Assembly: GCA_015665415.1 (NCBI GenBank)
Contig: JADFAE010000013.1
Coordinates: 62,001 to 126,000 of the forward strand
Source: Roseobacter sp.
Lineage (GTDB): Bacteria; Pseudomonadota; Alphaproteobacteria; Rhodobacterales; Rhodobacteraceae
DNA length: 64,000 nucleotides
Reading direction: 5' to 3'
The notes beneath the pieces are model-generated. The model had not been told where the DNA came from. It made no database searches and saw only the letters and a program-made list of their open reading frames with translations. Of the stretch, positions 32,574 to 41,646 are shown one piece after another; the first letter of the stretch is position 1; each line of letters begins with the position of its first letter. The position numbers and the translations under genes were made by a program.

Positions 32574-33401
32574 ATGTCCAACGCACAGCTGGAAACCGCG
32601 ATCGAGGCCGCCTGGGAGGCCCGTGACACCATCACCCCCGCCACCAAAGGCGAGCAGCGCGAAGCCATCGAAGCCACATTGCATGCGTTGGACAGCGGCA
32701 GCCTGCGGGTGGCCGAAAAACAGGACAGCGGCGACTGGCACGTCAACCAATGGGCCAAAAAGGCCGTGCTGCTGGGGTTCCGCATCAAGGACATGGAAAT
32801 GCAGTCCGGTGGTCCGCAGGGCTCTGGCTGGTGGGACAAGGTCGACAGCAAATTCCTGGGCTGGGGCGAAGCGGAATGGAAAGACGCGGGTTTTCGCGCC
32901 GTTCCCAACTGCGTGGTCCGCAAATCCGCCTATATCGCCCCCGGCGTGGTGCTGATGCCTTCTTTTGTGAACCTGGGTGCCCATGTTGACGAAGGCACCA
33001 TGGTTGACACCTGGGCCACCGTTGGCTCTTGCGCGCAGATCGGCAAAAACGTGCATCTCTCGGGTGGCGTTGGCATTGGCGGCGTGCTGGAACCCATGCA
33101 GGCTGGCCCCACCATCATCGAAGACAATTGCTTTATCGGTGCCCGGTCCGAAGTGGTCGAAGGCTGCATCGTGCGCGAAGGTTCGGTTTTGGGCATGGGC
33201 GTCTACATCGGCCAATCCACCAAGATCGTCGACCGCGAAACCGGCGAAGTGATGTATGGCGAAGTGCCGCCCTATTCGGTGGTTGTCTCCGGCTCGATGC
33301 CCTCCAAGAACAACGTCAGCCTTTACTGCGCCGTGATCGTCAAGCGCGTCGACGCCAAGACCCGCTCCAAGACCGGCATCAACGAGCTGCTGCGCGACTG
33401 A
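32574..33401 (+). CDS. dapD: 2,3,4,5-tetrahydropyridine-2,6-dicarboxylate N-succinyltransferase
   Basis: Step of the succinylase branch of diaminopimelate/lysine synthesis. The 275-residue length is normal. The N-terminal helical part is followed by a left-handed beta-helix of hexapeptide repeats from about residue 110 to 220 ([59 protein letters not shown]). The end [20 protein letters not shown] is typical. Its pathway partner dapE is 7.1 kb downstream, beyond the Hint block. A strong terminator follows. Confidence 0.97.
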
Positions 33402-34124: not shown

Positions 34125-35714
34125 TCAGACCTGGCCCTGTTGGAGGCTGGCAGACAGCAAAGCGCGGGCCTCAAAAGACTTCAGCGACAGGCGCGCACTG
34201 GCCCCGTAGGATGTGGGATCGCCTCCCATCAGCTCCAACACTTCCTGCCGGGTTTCGCCATCAAAACTGTCGAGAGTTTCGACCCCGGGATGGTAACTCT
34301 CGCTTTCCAGCCCATTGCCGCAAATGATCTCATGCTGATCAAACAGCAGATGGACATAGACCACCGGGGCACCATTCTCACGACGCTGAATGCTGTGACC
34401 ATTGACCAGATCACGGGCCTTGATCAAAATTTCGGCGGTGCCAAACAGCACCTCGGCCCATTTGTCTGTCAGCAACACACGGTGGCAAGGAGACAGCTCC
34501 AGCTCCTGATGTGCGCCCAGGGCTCCGGCGGCAAAACGCACCGGCGCGTCTGCCGCTTCGGCCCGACGTCGCGAGCGACCGATCCAACGCAGCGGCTGTG
34601 CCCCATGATCGCGGGTCATCACCATGTCGCCCGGCTCCAGCTCTTCGACGGCAACTGGCCCGGAAGCAGTATCGATCAAAGTCCCTGCAACAAAACAGGG
34701 CGTCGTGGTCATCTCGACAAAGGCCGTATCTGTATTGCCGCTGTCATCCGCGACGGTATAGGAAAATACCGTTTCCTCGTCGTCATCCACATCATCCTTG
34801 CCGGTGACCGTAAAGGTACCATCGTCATTCAGGGTGACTTCTTCCCCACCCGCCAAAGTAACGGTAGAACCGGCCACGACGGGTTGGTTGTTGATATGGG
34901 TGATTGTCAGCGTTGCGCCGTCGCCATGTTCATCATTGGCCAACACATCCAGGACGGCACTGTCACCTTCTTGAACGGTAACCTCGTCATCTTCGGCCAC
35001 AAGGGCTGTCTGAATGGAATCGCCTGCAATCAAGAGGTTTGAATCATAGACGGCGTCGCCCTGGTCCGCGATGCCGATTTTGATGGTGTTGATCTCGCCA
35101 GGATTGACCGGAGCCGTCAAGGTCAGGGTAATAGTGAACCCGTCCATTTCGGTATTGTAGGTGTCATCCGTTTGGGCATTGTCGACATAGAGGTTTTCGT
35201 TGGACTCGTCGTTGATGTTGTCAATCGAGATGTCACCTGTGCCGATGGTCATTTCCGCCTGAACACCGTTGACCCATACCCCAACCACATCGTTGAAACC
35301 GGCATCGACATATTCGAGGTATTCTTCGGATGAGAACACGAACTGCATGGTCAGGGTCGACCCGTCCGGAATGAATTCCGCCTCAAACACAGCGGCGTCG
35401 TAGGTTTGCCCACCAGCCAAAGTGGACAGATCGGAATCACCTGCTGTTCCCTGGTTCGTTGAGGTCCCAGCTCTGACGTTCACATCACCGCTGCTGTTGG
35501 TGACATCCTCTGCATTGCCTGTGGACAGGATAACCCCAGTGTCTGAGGGTGTGATGGCATCCGCTGTACTATCACCATCAGTATATATTCCAGATGCGCT
35601 GGTTGCACCGGTGTAGCTGGCGCTCTCAATAGTGATACCATTGCCAAACATGGCCTCAGCCATTTCTGCTGCCGTAGCAGACGTATCGATAGGCAACTCA
35701 GACGCAGTGGGCAT
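34125..35714 (-). CDS. Large Hint-domain protein with choice-of-anchor-L and cadherin-like domains (paralogue 1)
   Basis: A 529-residue, acidic protein. Residues about 20-235 match a choice-of-anchor L-like domain (SDTGVILSTGNAED, MQFVFSSEEYLEYV, DGFTITLTL, YDSNLLIAGDSIQT). About 240-335 is a cadherin/VCBS-like domain (VLDVLANDEHGDGATLTITH, LNDDGTFTVTG, VFSYTVADDSGNTD). From Cys340 a Hint domain of the bacterial Hint_2 type follows (PCFVAGTLIDTASG, GAQPLRWIGR, SPCHRVLL with His411, VYVHLLFDQHEII). Cys and His needed for an N-S shift are present, so self-cleavage is plausible. There is no Sec signal; secretion may be by a type I system not seen here. Paralogue of the gene at 38548. Confidence 0.85.
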   Translation of the reverse strand: MPTASELPIDTSATAAEMAEAMFGNGITIESASYTGATSASGIYTDGDSTADAITPSDTGVILSTGNAEDVTNSSGDVNVRAGTSTNQGTAGDSDLSTLAGGQTYDAAVFEAEFIPDGSTLTMQFVFSSEEYLEYVDAGFNDVVGVWVNGVQAEMTIGTGDISIDNINDESNENLYVDNAQTDDTYNTEMDGFTITLTLTAPVNPGEINTIKIGIADQGDAVYDSNLLIAGDSIQTALVAEDDEVTVQEGDSAVLDVLANDEHGDGATLTITHINNQPVVAGSTVTLAGGEEVTLNDDGTFTVTGKDDVDDDEETVFSYTVADDSGNTDTAFVEMTTTPCFVAGTLIDTASGPVAVEELEPGDMVMTRDHGAQPLRWIGRSRRRAEAADAPVRFAAGALGAHQELELSPCHRVLLTDKWAEVLFGTAEILIKARDLVNGHSIQRRENGAPVVYVHLLFDQHEIICGNGLESESYHPGVETLDSFDGETRQEVLELMGGDPTSYGASARLSLKSFEARALLSASLQQGQV

Positions 35715-35907: not shown

Positions 35908-36255
35908 ATGGAAAAGAAGAAAATATCCCGCCAGCAGGTCTATACGCTCCTGGTTCAGATTGGCCGCAAAGATGGCGATGGTCTGCCCGATGGGGCCACG
36001 GGGGCCGCGCTGATGATCTATGCCTCCGGCGTGGACGAAGCCGAGGCCGTGCGCGAGACCGTTGCCATCCTGAAACAGGCAGACACCGCACCCCTGGATG
36101 TCACCGGCTATGGCACCCTGAAAGAACGGGAAGAAGAAGGCCACGACATCGGCGAGGAAGAACGCGCTCTGATGCAGCGTGCGCTGGAGGAAAATGCTGT
36201 TATCGTTGCTCAGATGACACCCTTCTTTGAAGGCGACACACCCACCGTCCATTAA
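35908..36255 (+). CDS. Small protein of unknown function in the Hint block
   Basis: A 115-residue, acidic protein (MEKKKISRQQVYTLLVQIGR at the start). It looks mostly helical, with a Glu-rich stretch LKEREEEGHDIGEEERALMQ near 80-100, and contains ASGVDEAEAVRETVAILKQA in the middle. No signal peptide, membrane segment or recognised domain. The plus-strand gene sits inside a block otherwise read on the minus strand, diverging from paralogue 1 and converging with the channel gene. Its coding character is good, but its role is unknown. Confidence 0.65.
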   Translation: MEKKKISRQQVYTLLVQIGRKDGDGLPDGATGAALMIYASGVDEAEAVRETVAILKQADTAPLDVTGYGTLKEREEEGHDIGEEERALMQRALEENAVIVAQMTPFFEGDTPTVH

Positions 36256-36300: not shown

Positions 36301-37422
36301 TTAGTTCAATCGCCCAAACCAGCTGTGATAGATCGCTTCATAGCTGCCGTCTTCCTGCATCTCCAGAAGGGTGCGATTGACCTCTTCGGTGTGATCCGAC
36401 CCCTGCGGGAAGACAAATCCGTAATACTCACGCAGGAAAGCCGGCCCGATGGTGCGGCCATGGTTCTTGCCCTCATGCTGCACATAATAGTTCAACACCG
36501 GTGCATCAAAAACCACGGCGCGGATTTCGCCTGCTTCAAAGGCTGCTAGCATCTCTTCGAGATCATGATAGGCATAAAAGTCGATCTCGCGGCGCTCCAG
36601 AAAACCTGCAGCCGTTGAGCCGTCAATTGTCCCGGTGCGCTTGCCGTATAGGTCATTCACCGAAGTCACCGATGCGCTGATCGCCTCAACTGTCATAACG
36701 GCCGTGATCTTGGCCACGAAGATCGAGACAATAAACAGCGAGGACAGCACCAAAATCACGCCAAACATCCGGCCGATCGCCGTACGGGGCACCCGTTCTT
36801 CAAAACCGCCATTGACCACCAGGTTCAGGGCCCACCAGAAAGACGGGAACCAGGCCTCTTTTAGGGGGCGGTCAAAATAGGGCTGCGCGCGACGCTCAAG
36901 CGCCCACATGAACATGCCGCCCACCAGCAACAACAAAAAGGCCAGCCCAATGGCCAGCGCCAGATCCCAGGACAGAAGCGCATGCAGCAAGGATGGCTCG
37001 CGCACATCGTCCGCCTGCACCATGATCTGCAAGCCGCTTTCGAATACAGGCTGGCTAAAATCCATTACTGCTTCGCGTTTGGCAGTGATCGAGATATTGG
37101 CTGCTGCCAGATCCACCTGGGCAGTACGCACCCCCTCCAACATCTCCGCAAAGCTGTCCAGGCGGTTAATTTCAAGCGTCCAATTCAGACGTTTTGCAAT
37201 CTCCTGCAACAGTTCCAGAGAGAATCCGGTCTCTTTCCCATTTTCAAACATCGAAAAAGGCGGGCGGGTCACTGTATTCACGCTGATCACCTGCGCCGAC
37301 AGCGCAGTGCTCCACAGCAGAAGCAAAAGCGGGGAAAGGAGCCGAAGTGGGCGCAACAGAAAACCTAAAGACAAATGCATAATTTCAGAATTGGGTTTAG
37401 GAGGTTCGAATTGAGCACGCAA
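36301..37422 (-). CDS. Ionotropic glutamate receptor-like channel with atypical pore filter
   Basis: A 373-residue membrane protein with the bacterial iGluR layout. A hydrophobic N-terminal segment (about 22-43) looks like a signal peptide. The amino-acid-binding domain is split: lobe 1 at about 45-140 (VTRPPFSMFENGKETGFSLE, ANISITAKREAVMDFSQPVF with the likely carboxylate-binding Arg116), then helix M1 (152-173), a pore loop (192-210), helix M2 (218-245), and lobe 2 to the end with VVFDAPVLNYYV, whose Asp should hold the ligand amino group. The filter reads NGGFEE at 204-209 where K+-type relatives have TVGYGD. Start: TTG at 37420-37422 with AAGGA six bases before; the ATG at 37380 lacks a ribosome site. 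The degenerate Hint gene ends 11 bp upstream. Confidence 0.82.
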   Translation of the reverse strand: MRAQFEPPKPNSEIMHLSLGFLLRPLRLLSPLLLLLWSTALSAQVISVNTVTRPPFSMFENGKETGFSLELLQEIAKRLNWTLEINRLDSFAEMLEGVRTAQVDLAAANISITAKREAVMDFSQPVFESGLQIMVQADDVREPSLLHALLSWDLALAIGLAFLLLLVGGMFMWALERRAQPYFDRPLKEAWFPSFWWALNLVVNGGFEERVPRTAIGRMFGVILVLSSLFIVSIFVAKITAVMTVEAISASVTSVNDLYGKRTGTIDGSTAAGFLERREIDFYAYHDLEEMLAAFEAGEIRAVVFDAPVLNYYVQHEGKNHGRTIGPAFLREYYGFVFPQGSDHTEEVNRTLLEMQEDGSYEAIYHSWFGRLN

Positions 37423-37433
37423 GCTTGATCCTT

Positions 37434-38543
37434 TCAGGCGACCCGACGTTCGGCCAATATTGCGGCATCAAACGCACAAAGAACCGGGTATCGGGGAGGC
37501 CCGTGTTCCGGCAGAGAGCTGCGCTCGACCACCGCCAGTTGACTGGCCCCAAGCCGGATCGAATCCCGTCGCAGACTTCCCAGATACAGACTTTCCAACA
37601 CCCCTCCGGCAGCGCGCAACGGCATGTGGTCGGGCAAAACAAGCTGGCAGTAACACACCCGCAGCCCCGGATTTATCGCCGATGCCTCTGCGAGCCCCCC
37701 TCCGGCGGTGGCAACCGAGGTCCCCAGCAAATGCCGGGCTGGCACCAATACCGCAGGCTGGCCAAACATATACTCCACCTCGCTTCCGCGCAGCACCAGG
37801 CGCTGTGACGCCGAGACCTGAATATCCTGCTGCAACCCAAAAAAGGGAGCCCGCAGACGCACCGGTCGAAAGACACCCAAAGCCGGGAGTTCACGGTGCA
37901 ACACGTGCAGAACCGGTTGGCTGGCCCCGGTCTCGTCCAGCACCAGATCACCACGCCGCAGCGTGCCTGCTGCCCGATACCCCAGCGGGGTCGCCACCGG
38001 CGTCGAAGGGTCCAGCCCCGGCGTGGGCCCAACCGGCTCCAGTTGGTCCGACAACGCCAGATAGGTCAGCGCCGGGGACAGAAACCGCAAGGGACCGGGG
38101 CTCAGCAAGGTCATGAGATCGCGGTAACGCCAGGGCCGGGGTGGCGGCAGCGCGGTGATCTGCACCCGATCACTGTCGGCCCGTTCAAGGGTCAGACGGG
38201 CATATCCCGCCAGACTGTCCCAGGCATAGGTCAATCGGATTTGACCAGTACGGCCTGATTTACTGGGATTGAGCGTTGCATGAGACACTTGCCCGGACTG
38301 CTGCAATACCAGGCTCAGCCCTCCGCCCGGCACCGCCTGCAGCCCCAGCTCGATCGGCCAGTCGCCATCCTGGGCAAACAACAGCAGAGGTTCCGGACGC
38401 GCACTGTCGGGCAGCGTCATCTCTGCCACCAGGGTTCCCCGCAGCATAAGCGCATCCCCGCCGCCAGCTGAGGCCTGGGCCAGAGTCAGCCCCGCAAGGT
38501 CCCTTGTCCCGTCCGTAAGATCGATGATGCCCAGCCAGCGCAT
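37434..38543 (-). CDS. Degenerate Hint-domain protein
   Basis: A 369-residue protein. Residues 1-165 look beta-rich and jelly-roll-like (GGDALMLRGTLVAEMTLPD, LTYAWDSLAGYARLTLERAD). From about 175 the sequence follows the Hint domains of its neighbours: DPSTPVATPLG, LRRGDLVLDETGASQPVL, SASQRLVLRGSEVEYMFGQP, LVLPDHMPLRAAGGVLESLY. The nucleophilic Cys position is Gly176 and the SPxHR histidine is Gln247, so autoproteolysis should be lost. The ATG lies four bases after the stop of paralogue 2, implying one operon. No signal peptide. The name rests on pattern matching to the neighbours. Confidence 0.72.
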   Translation of the reverse strand: MRWLGIIDLTDGTRDLAGLTLAQASAGGGDALMLRGTLVAEMTLPDSARPEPLLLFAQDGDWPIELGLQAVPGGGLSLVLQQSGQVSHATLNPSKSGRTGQIRLTYAWDSLAGYARLTLERADSDRVQITALPPPRPWRYRDLMTLLSPGPLRFLSPALTYLALSDQLEPVGPTPGLDPSTPVATPLGYRAAGTLRRGDLVLDETGASQPVLHVLHRELPALGVFRPVRLRAPFFGLQQDIQVSASQRLVLRGSEVEYMFGQPAVLVPARHLLGTSVATAGGGLAEASAINPGLRVCYCQLVLPDHMPLRAAGGVLESLYLGSLRRDSIRLGASQLAVVERSSLPEHGPPRYPVLCAFDAAILAERRVA

Positions 38544-38547
38544 GGGA

Positions 38548-40119
38548 TCAGGCGGCCTGCATCGCCGCAAGCAACTGACCCTCATAGGCCTTGAGCGCGG
38601 GCCGTGCAGCAGGCCCATAGCCAAGCCCGGTTTCCGGGTCCAGCTCAGGGAACAGCGCATAGATCTCTTGCAGCACCGCTTGTTCAAACAGCCCATTGGT
38701 CTGCGGCCCCGGCAAGAAACTCTCGGTGGCCAGCCCTTCGGAATAGATCACCTGATGGCGGTCAAACAGCAGGTGCACATAGGTGACCTCACCGCCGATG
38801 CAGCGGCAAATACTGTGCCCATTGATCAGATCCTTTGCCGCCACCAAAACCTCGCCTTCGCCAAAAAACAGCTCTGCATAGGCGTCCCGCAGCAAAACCC
38901 GATGTTGCGGCGACACCCTCAGATCCCGATGCTGGCCCAGGCTGCCTGCCCGGATCAGGATTGGCGCGAAATCGCCCTCGGCGGCGACACTGCGTGACCC
39001 AATCCAGCGCAGAGGCTGCGGGCCATCGTCCCGCGTCATGACCATATCGCCGAGCTGCAGATCCTCGACCGGAACCTCACCGTCCGGTGTCTGAATCAGG
39101 GTGCCCGCGACGAAACAAGGGATCGAGCTGGCGTTGACAAAACCGGTATCGCTGTTGGCACCATTATCGGCGATATAGGTGAAGTTGAAATCTTCGATGT
39201 CCCCATCGCCATAGAGCGTCAGGGTGCCATCGGCATTAACTTCGACCTGCTGACCGGTGGGCAGCGTCACGATCGATCCAGATGTCACGGCCACCCCGTT
39301 GATATGGGTAACGGTGAGCACCCCTCCGGATGTGTTTTCATCATTGCTCAGCACATCGATGGTCTTGCTGCCATCCGCGGCTACATGGGCCTCATCGGTA
39401 ATTGCCACCAGATCGGTCTGCACCGAATCTGCGGCAATCAACAGGTTGCTGTCATAGCTACTGTCGCCGACATCGGCGATGCCGATGCGAATATCGTTCA
39501 CCACGCCAGGATTGACCGTCATGGTCAGCGTCATGGTGACGGTAAAGCCGTCCATCTCGGTGTTGTAATCGTCGCCGGTGTTGTCGACGTAGAGGTTTTC
39601 GTTGATCGAAGCACTGATATTGCCCGGATTCGCCGTCCCGCCGCTGACATCCATCTCAACGACTTCGCCATTGACCCAGACTGACACCACATCCTGATAG
39701 ATCGAATTTTGGTATTCCGGGAATTCCTCGGATGAAAACACAAATTCGATCGTCATGGTGGAGCTGTCCGGAATGAAGCTCACATCCAGATAGGAGGCAT
39801 CATAGGTATTGGTGCCAGCCACGGCATTGAAATCGGAATTATTGTTCTCACCCGTGGTATTGGTTGAGGTGCTGGTTGATCGGTTGGGATCCCCGCCTGA
39901 ATTGGTGAATTTGTTGACCCGCCCAGTGGACAGAATCACCCCCGTGTCGCCCGGAGTGGCCCCCGGTGCCAAAGCATCCCCGTTTGAATAGATCCCCGAA
40001 GATCTGCTGTCGCCAGTGTAATCCGCACTGACCACCGTGACGCCATCACCAAAGATGGTCTCAGCCATCTCGGTCGCGCTTGCACCGGAATCATATCCCA
40101 GCTCTGCTGCTGTTGCCAT
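38548..40119 (-). CDS. Large Hint-domain protein with choice-of-anchor-L and cadherin-like domains (paralogue 2)
   Basis: A 523-residue acidic protein with the same architecture as the gene at 34125: a choice-of-anchor L-like region (about 20-235; GDTGVILSTGRVNKFTNSGG, IEFVFSSEEFPEYQ, YDSNLLIAADSVQT), a cadherin-like region (about 240-330; IDVLSNDENTSGGVLTVTHI), and a Hint domain from Cys335 (PCFVAGTLIQTPDG, GPQPLRWIGSR, SPQHRVLL with His406, VTYVHLLFDRHQVI). Its active-site residues are intact. It is the first gene of a probable operon with the degenerate Hint gene and the channel gene. A CtrA-like box lies 159 bp upstream. Thr/Ser/Asn-rich stretches suggest a surface protein. Confidence 0.85.
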   Translation of the reverse strand: MATAAELGYDSGASATEMAETIFGDGVTVVSADYTGDSRSSGIYSNGDALAPGATPGDTGVILSTGRVNKFTNSGGDPNRSTSTSTNTTGENNNSDFNAVAGTNTYDASYLDVSFIPDSSTMTIEFVFSSEEFPEYQNSIYQDVVSVWVNGEVVEMDVSGGTANPGNISASINENLYVDNTGDDYNTEMDGFTVTMTLTMTVNPGVVNDIRIGIADVGDSSYDSNLLIAADSVQTDLVAITDEAHVAADGSKTIDVLSNDENTSGGVLTVTHINGVAVTSGSIVTLPTGQQVEVNADGTLTLYGDGDIEDFNFTYIADNGANSDTGFVNASSIPCFVAGTLIQTPDGEVPVEDLQLGDMVMTRDDGPQPLRWIGSRSVAAEGDFAPILIRAGSLGQHRDLRVSPQHRVLLRDAYAELFFGEGEVLVAAKDLINGHSICRCIGGEVTYVHLLFDRHQVIYSEGLATESFLPGPQTNGLFEQAVLQEIYALFPELDPETGLGYGPAARPALKAYEGQLLAAMQAA

Positions 40120-40500: not shown

Positions 40501-41646
40501 ATGTCCCCCATCGACCCGGTTCGCCTGACAGCGGATCTGATCCGCTGCCCTTCGGTCACCCCTGTCGAGGGCGGCGCACTGCAGTTGCTGGAGGATCTAC
40601 TGACTGATGCGGGCTTTGTCTGCAGCCGGGTGGATCGTGGAGGCATCGCCAATCTCTTTGCCCGCTGGGGCGACAAGGGCCATGGCCGCAGCTTTGGCTT
40701 CAATGGCCACACGGACGTGGTGCCGCTGGGGGATGAGGCCGCCTGGACCATGCCGCCTTTTGGTGCCGAGGTGAAAGACGGGGTGATGTATGGCCGCGGT
40801 GCCACCGACATGAAATCCGGTGTCGCCGCCTTTGCCGCCGCCGCCATTGATTTTGTCCGACAGACCCCTCCGGATGGCGCCGTGATCCTGACCATCACCG
40901 GCGACGAAGAAGGCGACGCAATCGACGGCACCACCGCCCTGCTGGACTATATTGAGACCAATGGCGAGAAGATGGACGTCTGCTTGGTCGGGGAACCCAC
41001 CTGCCCCAATACCATGGGCGAGATGATCAAGATCGGCCGTCGCGGCTCGATGACCGCCTGGTTCACGGTGACCGGTAAACAAGGACATTCGGCCTATCCC
41101 CACCGCGCCAACAACCCGCTCAATGCCATGGCGCGGCTGATGGACCGCCTCGCCAGCCACGAGCTGGACCAGGGTACCGACCATTTTGACGCGTCAACTT
41201 TGGCGGTGGTCACCATCGACACCGGCAATCTCGCCACCAATGTGATCCCGGCCCAAAGCACAGCCACGGTGAACATCCGCTTTAATGACAGCCACAGCGG
41301 TGCCAGCCTCAGCAGCTGGCTGCAGCAGGAGGTCGACAAGGTGGCGCAGGAATTTGGCGTCGAGATCGAGACCAAAATCAAGATCTCCGGCGAGAGCTTC
41401 ATCACTCCGCCCGGTGCTCTGTCGGATCTGGTCGCAGCGGCAGTCGAGGCGGAAACCGGCATCCGGCCAGAGCTGTCGACCACCGGTGGCACCTCAGATG
41501 CGCGTTTTGTGAAAAACCATTGCCCCGTTGTCGAATTTGGTCTGGTCGGCAAGACCATGCATCAGGTCGATGAAAACGTGCCGGTTGCGCAGATCACCCA
41601 GCTCAAATCGATCTACACCCGTATTCTGAAGGATTATTTCGCATGA
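40501..41646 (+). CDS. dapE: Succinyl-diaminopimelate desuccinylase
   Basis: Zinc M20 amidohydrolase that removes succinate in the DAP/lysine pathway. The 381-residue product shows [19 protein letters not shown] with the first metal His/Asp, [20 protein letters not shown] with the catalytic Glu pair, and [20 protein letters not shown] and [13 protein letters not shown] at the end. The dimerisation domain is about residues 180-295. GGAG precedes the ATG by seven bases. It overlaps the next gene by four bases. It belongs to the same pathway as dapD at 32574. Confidence 0.96.

What the first reader, a model, noticed from the sequence alone, without database searches (positions are those of the whole stretch)
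36301..40119. Probable operon of Hint protein, degenerate Hint protein and glutamate-receptor-like channel
Seen: three minus-strand genes with gaps of 4 and 11 bp; the ribosome site of the channel gene starts on the last base of the degenerate Hint gene. Known: Hint domains self-cleave proteins, and bacterial iGluR-like proteins couple amino-acid binding to a pore. Inference: a secreted, self-processed surface protein made together with an inactive Hint-like partner and a ligand-gated channel could be an uncharacterised surface-signalling or sensing module. I know of no described system with this trio.
Basis: partly seen in the sequence, partly recalled or inferred. Interest (0 to 1): 0.75.

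Follow-up and report, generated by a model that had tools for sequence, protein, structure and literature searches.

The report
Surface-protein gene pair beside glutamate-receptor-like channel
A family of bacteria keeps two probable surface-protein genes tightly together, one with a self-cutting domain and one with a worn-out copy of that domain, next to a gene for a glutamate-receptor-like channel that looks like a looser neighbour.

Summary
The three minus-strand genes are real and lie as described, between dapE and dapD. Gene 1: choice-of-anchor-L domain plus a Hint_2 domain with its catalytic Cys and His, kept in 42 and 43 of 43 aligned sequences. Gene 2, the 'degenerate Hint', is not a pseudogene: one clade, frames open, predicted laminin-G-like N-domain and Hint fold, Cys lost in 43 of 46 and His in 38 of 46. 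Genes 1 and 2 are a tight pair: median gap 4 bp in 29 loci. Gene 3 is a bacterial glutamate-receptor-like channel with pore NGGFEE instead of TVGYGD in 33 of 34 sequences. It follows gene 2 directly in 15 of 34 channel-bearing genera (12 with gene 1 too); 5 have an opposite-strand gene between, 3 have the pair elsewhere, 11 have no gene 2 above my line. I read genes 1 and 2 as a co-made, exported surface module with an active and an inactive Hint domain, and the channel as a neighbour by position that may share the transcript. Function is inferred, not shown.

The parts
38548..40119 (-). Gene 1, Hint protein (P0001): choice-of-anchor-L domain (aa 17-233), Ig-like stretch below Pfam's cut-off, Hint_2 domain with Cys335 and block-B His406, C-terminal tail
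37434..38543 (-). Gene 2, degenerate-Hint protein (P0002): laminin-G-like N-domain (about aa 1-165, from the model), Hint fold with Gly in place of Cys1 and Gln in place of the block-B His, tail with the motif shared by other Hint_2 proteins
36301..37422 (-). Gene 3, glutamate-receptor-like channel (P0003): amino-acid-binding domain split by a two-helix pore with loop NGGFEE; start TTG 37422 or ATG 37380
34125..35714 (-). Second choice-of-anchor-L/Hint_2 protein (P0004), a relative of P0001, beyond the small + strand gene; such a gene is in 12 of 60 loci
35908..36255 (+). Small gene without a Pfam match, its family in 45 of 60 loci, each time on the strand opposite to the Hint/channel genes
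40510..41646 (+). dapE-like M20 peptidase, one border
32574..33401 (+). dapD-like tetrahydrodipicolinate N-succinyltransferase, other border

Best explanation
Genes 1 and 2 are a translationally coupled pair that makes two exported surface proteins. Gene 1's product carries a surface-protein-type domain and a working Hint_2 domain that I expect to cut (or transfer) the mature part at Cys335 after export. Gene 2's product carries a laminin-G-like domain on a Hint domain that kept its fold and tail but lost the catalytic pair, so it stays whole and serves as a non-cleaving partner or anchor of the first. Export by a type I system through the C-terminal part is the likeliest route. The channel behind them is an amino-acid-gated cation channel that is not a K+ channel; it is a neighbour by old position near dapE-dapD and only in some genera directly behind the pair. 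Shown: gene order, gaps, conservation, loss of catalytic residues, pore sequence; predicted: fold. Inferred: export, cleavage, partnership, ligand and ion.
For: Gap from gene 1 to gene 2 -4 to 40 bp in 27 of 29 relatives, median 4, eight with a 4-bp overlap. 46 of 70 gene 2 hits have a gene 1-type hit upstream on the same strand within 2.5 kb, 42 within 200 bp. In the 3 genera where pair and channel lie apart (G070, G052, G009) the pair is still together and the channel lies on the dapD side. Cys1 in 42 of 43 and His in 43 of 43 aligned gene 1-type sequences, two of which are other Hint_2 proteins of the same stretches; in gene 2 Cys1 is missing in 43 of 46 and His in 38 of 46 (window included in both). 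Gene 2 is one clade (SH-aLRT 100 and 97, quick trees). Model of P0002 pLDDT 90.5; Foldseek lists laminin-G, neurexin, thrombospondin N-domain and CBM40 folds and inteins/BIL domains. Tail core L...(E/D)(A/G)..L, by eye, in 8 of 12 Hint_2 proteins of this genome, P0002 among them; one of the 8 (L101) has RTX-type repeats by eye. No signal peptide by eye in P0001 and P0002; two PrtD-type export ATPases above the family cut-off in the genome. Pore NGGFEE in 33 of 34, NGSFEE in one; Arg116 and Asp306, by recall the amino-acid-binding pair, invariant in 29 of 29.
Against: 24 of 70 gene 2 hits have no gene 1-type hit within 2.5 kb, so the partnership is not obligate, though some of these hits are distant. 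Position 1 of gene 2 is Ser or Thr in 25 of 46, and Cys plus His remain in 2 of 46, so some relatives may be active. Other Cys1-less Hint_2 domains occur elsewhere in this genome. The laminin-G-like reading is fold-level only: TM-scores to such targets are at most about 0.5. The tail motif is short and may belong to the Hint fold. P0001 has no RTX repeats by eye. The model of P0001 is weak (pLDDT 68). No transcript, export or cleavage data.
Confidence: 0.5

Rival explanations
1. One three-gene sensing module: the channel reads amino acids in the periplasm and acts together with the two Hint proteins.
For: 12 genera have all three in a row and 15 have gene 2 directly before the channel; gene 1-type proteins are in 24 of 34 channel genera and 36 of 115 others (Fisher 6e-5), gene 2 in 23 of 34 and 46 of 115 (0.006), neither corrected for kinship.
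Against: 11 of 34 channel genera have no gene 2 above my line, 5 have an opposite-strand gene between, 3 have the pair elsewhere; dapE, dapD and the small + strand gene are conserved there too.
Confidence: 0.15
2. Plain vertical synteny: three genes held in an old dapE-dapD neighbourhood, gene 2 being a decayed Hint relative with no joint task.
For: dapE is in 56 and dapD in 45 of 60 loci, both in 42; P0004 shows that Hint proteins multiply here.
Against: Gene 2 keeps open frame, fold, tail and a tight gap to gene 1 over many genera and has its own N-domain.
Confidence: 0.25
3. Gene 2 is an active Hint enzyme with another nucleophile (Ser or Thr at position 1) in many genera.
For: Ser or Thr at position 1 in 25 of 46; Cys and His both kept in 2 of 46.
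Against: Gly in 15 of 46, the window among them; block-B His replaced in 38 of 46, by Gln in 32.
Confidence: 0.1

Closest known systems
Hint_2 (Pfam PF13403), Hedgehog/intein-type domain; bacterial intein-like domains
   Same: P0001 has the domain, Cys1 and the block-B His; P0002 has the predicted fold and 79.6 bits
   Different: P0002 lacks the catalytic pair and is coupled to an apparently active Hint gene; no description of such a pair turned up in the searches
Prokaryotic ionotropic glutamate receptors (GluR0; 'Group 2' of Ger et al. 2010, PMC2950845, passages and section 7 seen)
   Same: binding domain split by two membrane helices and a pore loop; Group 2 has no recognised K+ filter
   Different: neither the NGGFEE filter nor the gene neighbourhood is mentioned in what I saw of that paper; that its listed YP_168531.1 is from Ruegeria pomeroyi is recalled, not checked
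choice-of-anchor L domain (NCBIfam NF038133)
   Same: P0001 147.6 bits, P0004 185.6 bits
   Different: here joined to Hint_2; that other members carry other anchors is recalled
Laminin G-like / CBM40-type domains
   Same: N-domain of the P0002 model resembles them in Foldseek
   Different: no accepted match in Pfam or NCBIfam and none among PDB sequences; binding not tested

Membership tests
Hint_2 / Hedgehog-intein domain, P0001 | profile match and fold | tested here: met
   182.3 bits against cut-off 28.4; intein and BIL matches of the model
Hint_2 / Hedgehog-intein domain, P0001 | Cys1 and block-B His | tested here: met
   both in the window; 42 of 43 and 43 of 43 aligned sequences
Hint_2 / Hedgehog-intein domain, P0001 | self-cleavage | not testable with these tools
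   needs purified protein
Hint_2 / Hedgehog-intein domain, P0002 | profile match and fold | tested here: met
   79.6 bits; inteins 6riy, 6tmm, 2lwy among Foldseek rows
Hint_2 / Hedgehog-intein domain, P0002 | Cys1 and block-B His | tested here: not met
   Gly and Gln in the window; 43 of 46 without Cys, 38 of 46 without His
Prokaryotic ionotropic glutamate receptor | amino-acid-binding domain split by a two-helix pore | tested here: met
   SBP_bac_3 52-370 around Lig_chan 163-263
Prokaryotic ionotropic glutamate receptor, GluR0-type K+ channel | TVGYGD filter | tested here: not met
   NGGFEE in 33 of 34; TVGYGD or TIGYGD occurs in more distant relatives
Prokaryotic iGluR Group 2 (Ger 2010) | channel topology without a recognised K+ filter | tested here: inconclusive
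   criterion fits; the listed members were not compared directly
Type I secretion substrate, P0001 and P0002 | no N-terminal signal peptide, C-terminal export signal | tested here: inconclusive
   no signal peptide by eye; shared tail core; exporters in the genome
RTX type I substrate, P0001 | glycine-rich Ca2+ repeats | tested here: not met
   none seen by eye in P0001

The most novel reading that the evidence does not exclude
The active Hint domain of P0001 does not merely cut but hands its ectodomain, as a thioester, to the co-made inactive Hint partner P0002, giving a covalently joined two-protein surface fibre or tether; the dead Hint domain is the docking platform that orients the transfer.
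Probability: 0.08. Interest if true: 0.8.

Novelty: new variant of a known kind. Interest (0 to 1): 0.42.

Why it matters
This genome has 12 Hint_2 domains, yet the library holds only 2 papers that name PF13403. A conserved pair of an apparently active and a catalytically dead Hint protein is a natural handle for testing what the domain does at the bacterial surface. The channel clade, with its conserved non-K+ pore, offers a bacterial glutamate-receptor relative for asking when such channels lost K+ selectivity.

Tried and rejected
Rejected: gene 2 as a pseudogene (no stop inside any of the 70 hits used; aligned over 37 sequences; one clade). Rejected: a mobile or phage origin (dapE in 56 of 60 loci; in the class-wide search 3 of 240 genomes matched at E 1e-25, the window's own among them and all of its family). 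Rejected: K+ channel. Led nowhere: PDB sequence search with P0002 (0 matches); promoter scan; named-genome scan with P0002 (1 locus, Tateyamaria); paper searches on choice-of-anchor L (0), Hint domain with Roseobacter (0), Hint_2 with Rhodobacterales (0). A first tree held none of the other Hint_2 domains because my pattern found none; the second added 15: nine from this genome, four from two others and two that are the same gene fetched twice.

Rows dropped before counts: one search used 70 gene 2 hits in 69 genomes (down to E 6e-22) of the 121 of 149 genomes matched; weaker and Hint-only hits were left out, so 'no gene 2' means none above that line. It used 35 channel hits in 34 genomes and left out 9 weaker rows. 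Its 60 genomes with gene 1-type proteins include P0004-type hits. The 34 pores (window included, two from one genome) are those of fetched loci; the remaining hit, in G120, has another pore (NASFTI). The 60 loci include two each from genomes G052, G060 and G070. In one search the ORF picker took the antisense of gene 2 in L045; one search shows the gene there. Fisher tests are not corrected for kinship.
Full report
Observation. The channel's start is open: the TTG at 37422 has the AAAGGA, while the ATG at 37380 begins what looks by eye like a signal peptide and leaves 53 bp; 11 of 15 relatives with direct adjacency have gaps of 35-75 bp counted to the first start codon. The window is part of contig C5 of a 4.47-Mb genome.

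Parts. P0001: choice-of-anchor-L (147.6 bits) and Hint_2 (182.3 bits). P0002: Hint_2 at 79.6 bits over aa 178-322 and no other accepted domain. P0003: SBP_bac_3 wrapped around Lig_chan; best solved relatives by sequence are a bacterial glutamate-receptor homologue and amino-acid-binding proteins. P0004, beyond the channel and the small gene, is a relative of P0001 (54% identity).

Neighbourhood. I searched 149 genomes of the family, each of its own genus, and fetched 59 stretches around hits. With the window that makes 60 loci: dapE is in 56, dapD in 45, both in 42, and the small gene in 45, each time on the opposite strand (domains). Counts from typed hit coordinates: gene 2 in 69 of 149 genomes, gene 1-type proteins in 60, channel in 34. 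A gene 1-type hit lies upstream of gene 2 on the same strand within 2.5 kb for 46 of 70 gene 2 hits. With gene starts set by alignment the gap is -4 to 40 bp in 27 of 29 relatives, median 4. The channel follows gene 2 directly in 15 of 34 genera (16 loci), 12 of them with gene 1 too; 5 have an opposite-strand gene between; 3 have the pair elsewhere and the channel on the dapD side; 11 have no gene 2 above my line. So the pair is tight and the channel loose. None of these counts is corrected for kinship.

Gene 2 is a dead Hint, not a dead gene. Among 46 sequences position 1 is Thr 16, Gly 15, Ser 9, Cys 3, Ala 2, Trp 1; the block-B His place is Gln 32, His 8, others 6; Cys and His both remain in 2. 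Among 43 gene 1-type sequences (two are other Hint_2 proteins of the same stretches) Cys is kept in 42 and His in 43. Gene 2 forms one clade, SH-aLRT 100 and 97 when 15 further Hint_2 domains, two of them duplicates, are added; both are quick trees without bootstrap. The AlphaFold2 model (37 sequences) has pLDDT 90.5. Foldseek lists laminin-G, neurexin, thrombospondin and CBM40 folds and inteins and BIL domains at E 7e-5 to 7e-4 in the 50 rows shown; TM-scores by target length are at most about 0.5 for the former and up to 0.66 for the latter, so the N-domain reading is at fold level only. Class-wide, 3 of 240 genomes matched, all of the window's family. Dead-looking Hint_2 domains are not unique to this place: 5 of the 12 in this genome lack Cys1.

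Export. No signal peptide is visible by eye in P0001 or P0002. Eight of 12 Hint_2 proteins of this genome, P0002 among them, share a short tail core L...(E/D)(A/G)..L, and L101 among them has RTX-type repeats (by eye). Two type I export ATPases score above the family cut-off. This makes type I export likely but does not show it.

Channel. 33 of 34 sequences read NGGFEE where K+ channels read TVGYGD; one reads NGSFEE. More distant relatives read TVGYGD, TIGYGD or other sequences, so this is a property of the clade. Class-wide 4 of 230 genomes matched at E 1e-30, two of them outside the window's family and without the NGGFEE pore. Ger et al. 2010 (PMC2950845; passages and section 7 seen) already described bacterial channels of this topology without a K+ filter as Group 2.

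Literature. Searches of the held library: Hint domain + Rhodobacter + type I secretion (1 paper, a table row and a reference only), prokaryotic + ionotropic glutamate receptor + selectivity filter + GluR0 (7, one followed up), choice-of-anchor L (0), two of bacterial intein-like / Hint / alphaproteobacteria (980, 20 listed), Hint domain + Roseobacter (0), Hint domain + autoproteolytic + adhesin + secreted (2, listing only), PF13403 (2, listing), Hint_2 + Rhodobacterales (0). Passages of PMC3482391 on HINT in polymorphic toxins were seen; there it precedes a toxin domain. Most subscription papers are not held, so 'undescribed' is limited to these searches.

Verdict. A new variant of a known kind: a conserved active/inactive Hint protein pair beside dapE, with a known kind of channel as an optional neighbour.

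Noticed in passing
L106-L109 (the window's own genome): Four other Hint_2 proteins lack Cys at position 1 (Ser, Ala, Gly, Gly by eye); L108 and L109 also show Gln at the block-B His place, like P0002.
   Followed up: partly
35908-36255 (+): Small 115-aa gene with no Pfam match; its family is in 45 of 60 loci, each time on the strand opposite to the Hint/channel genes.
   Followed up: partly
L113-L115 (genome G282): Three matches to the channel profile close together on one contig of another family of the class, with pores that are neither TVGYGD nor NGGFEE.
   Followed up: no
L118, L119 (genomes G003, G103): Genomes with the dap-locus channel and a second, TVGYGD-type relative.
   Followed up: no
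L051, L054: The channel stands beside a P0004-type Hint gene although genes 1 and 2 are missing there; directly in L054, with the small gene between in L051.
   Followed up: no
L038:7905-9656 (+): An opposite-strand gene, by eye amidohydrolase-like, sits between gene 2 and the channel in genome G031.
   Followed up: partly
L050:7643-9259: The one gene 1-type sequence of 43 without Cys1 (Tyr instead), His kept.
   Followed up: no
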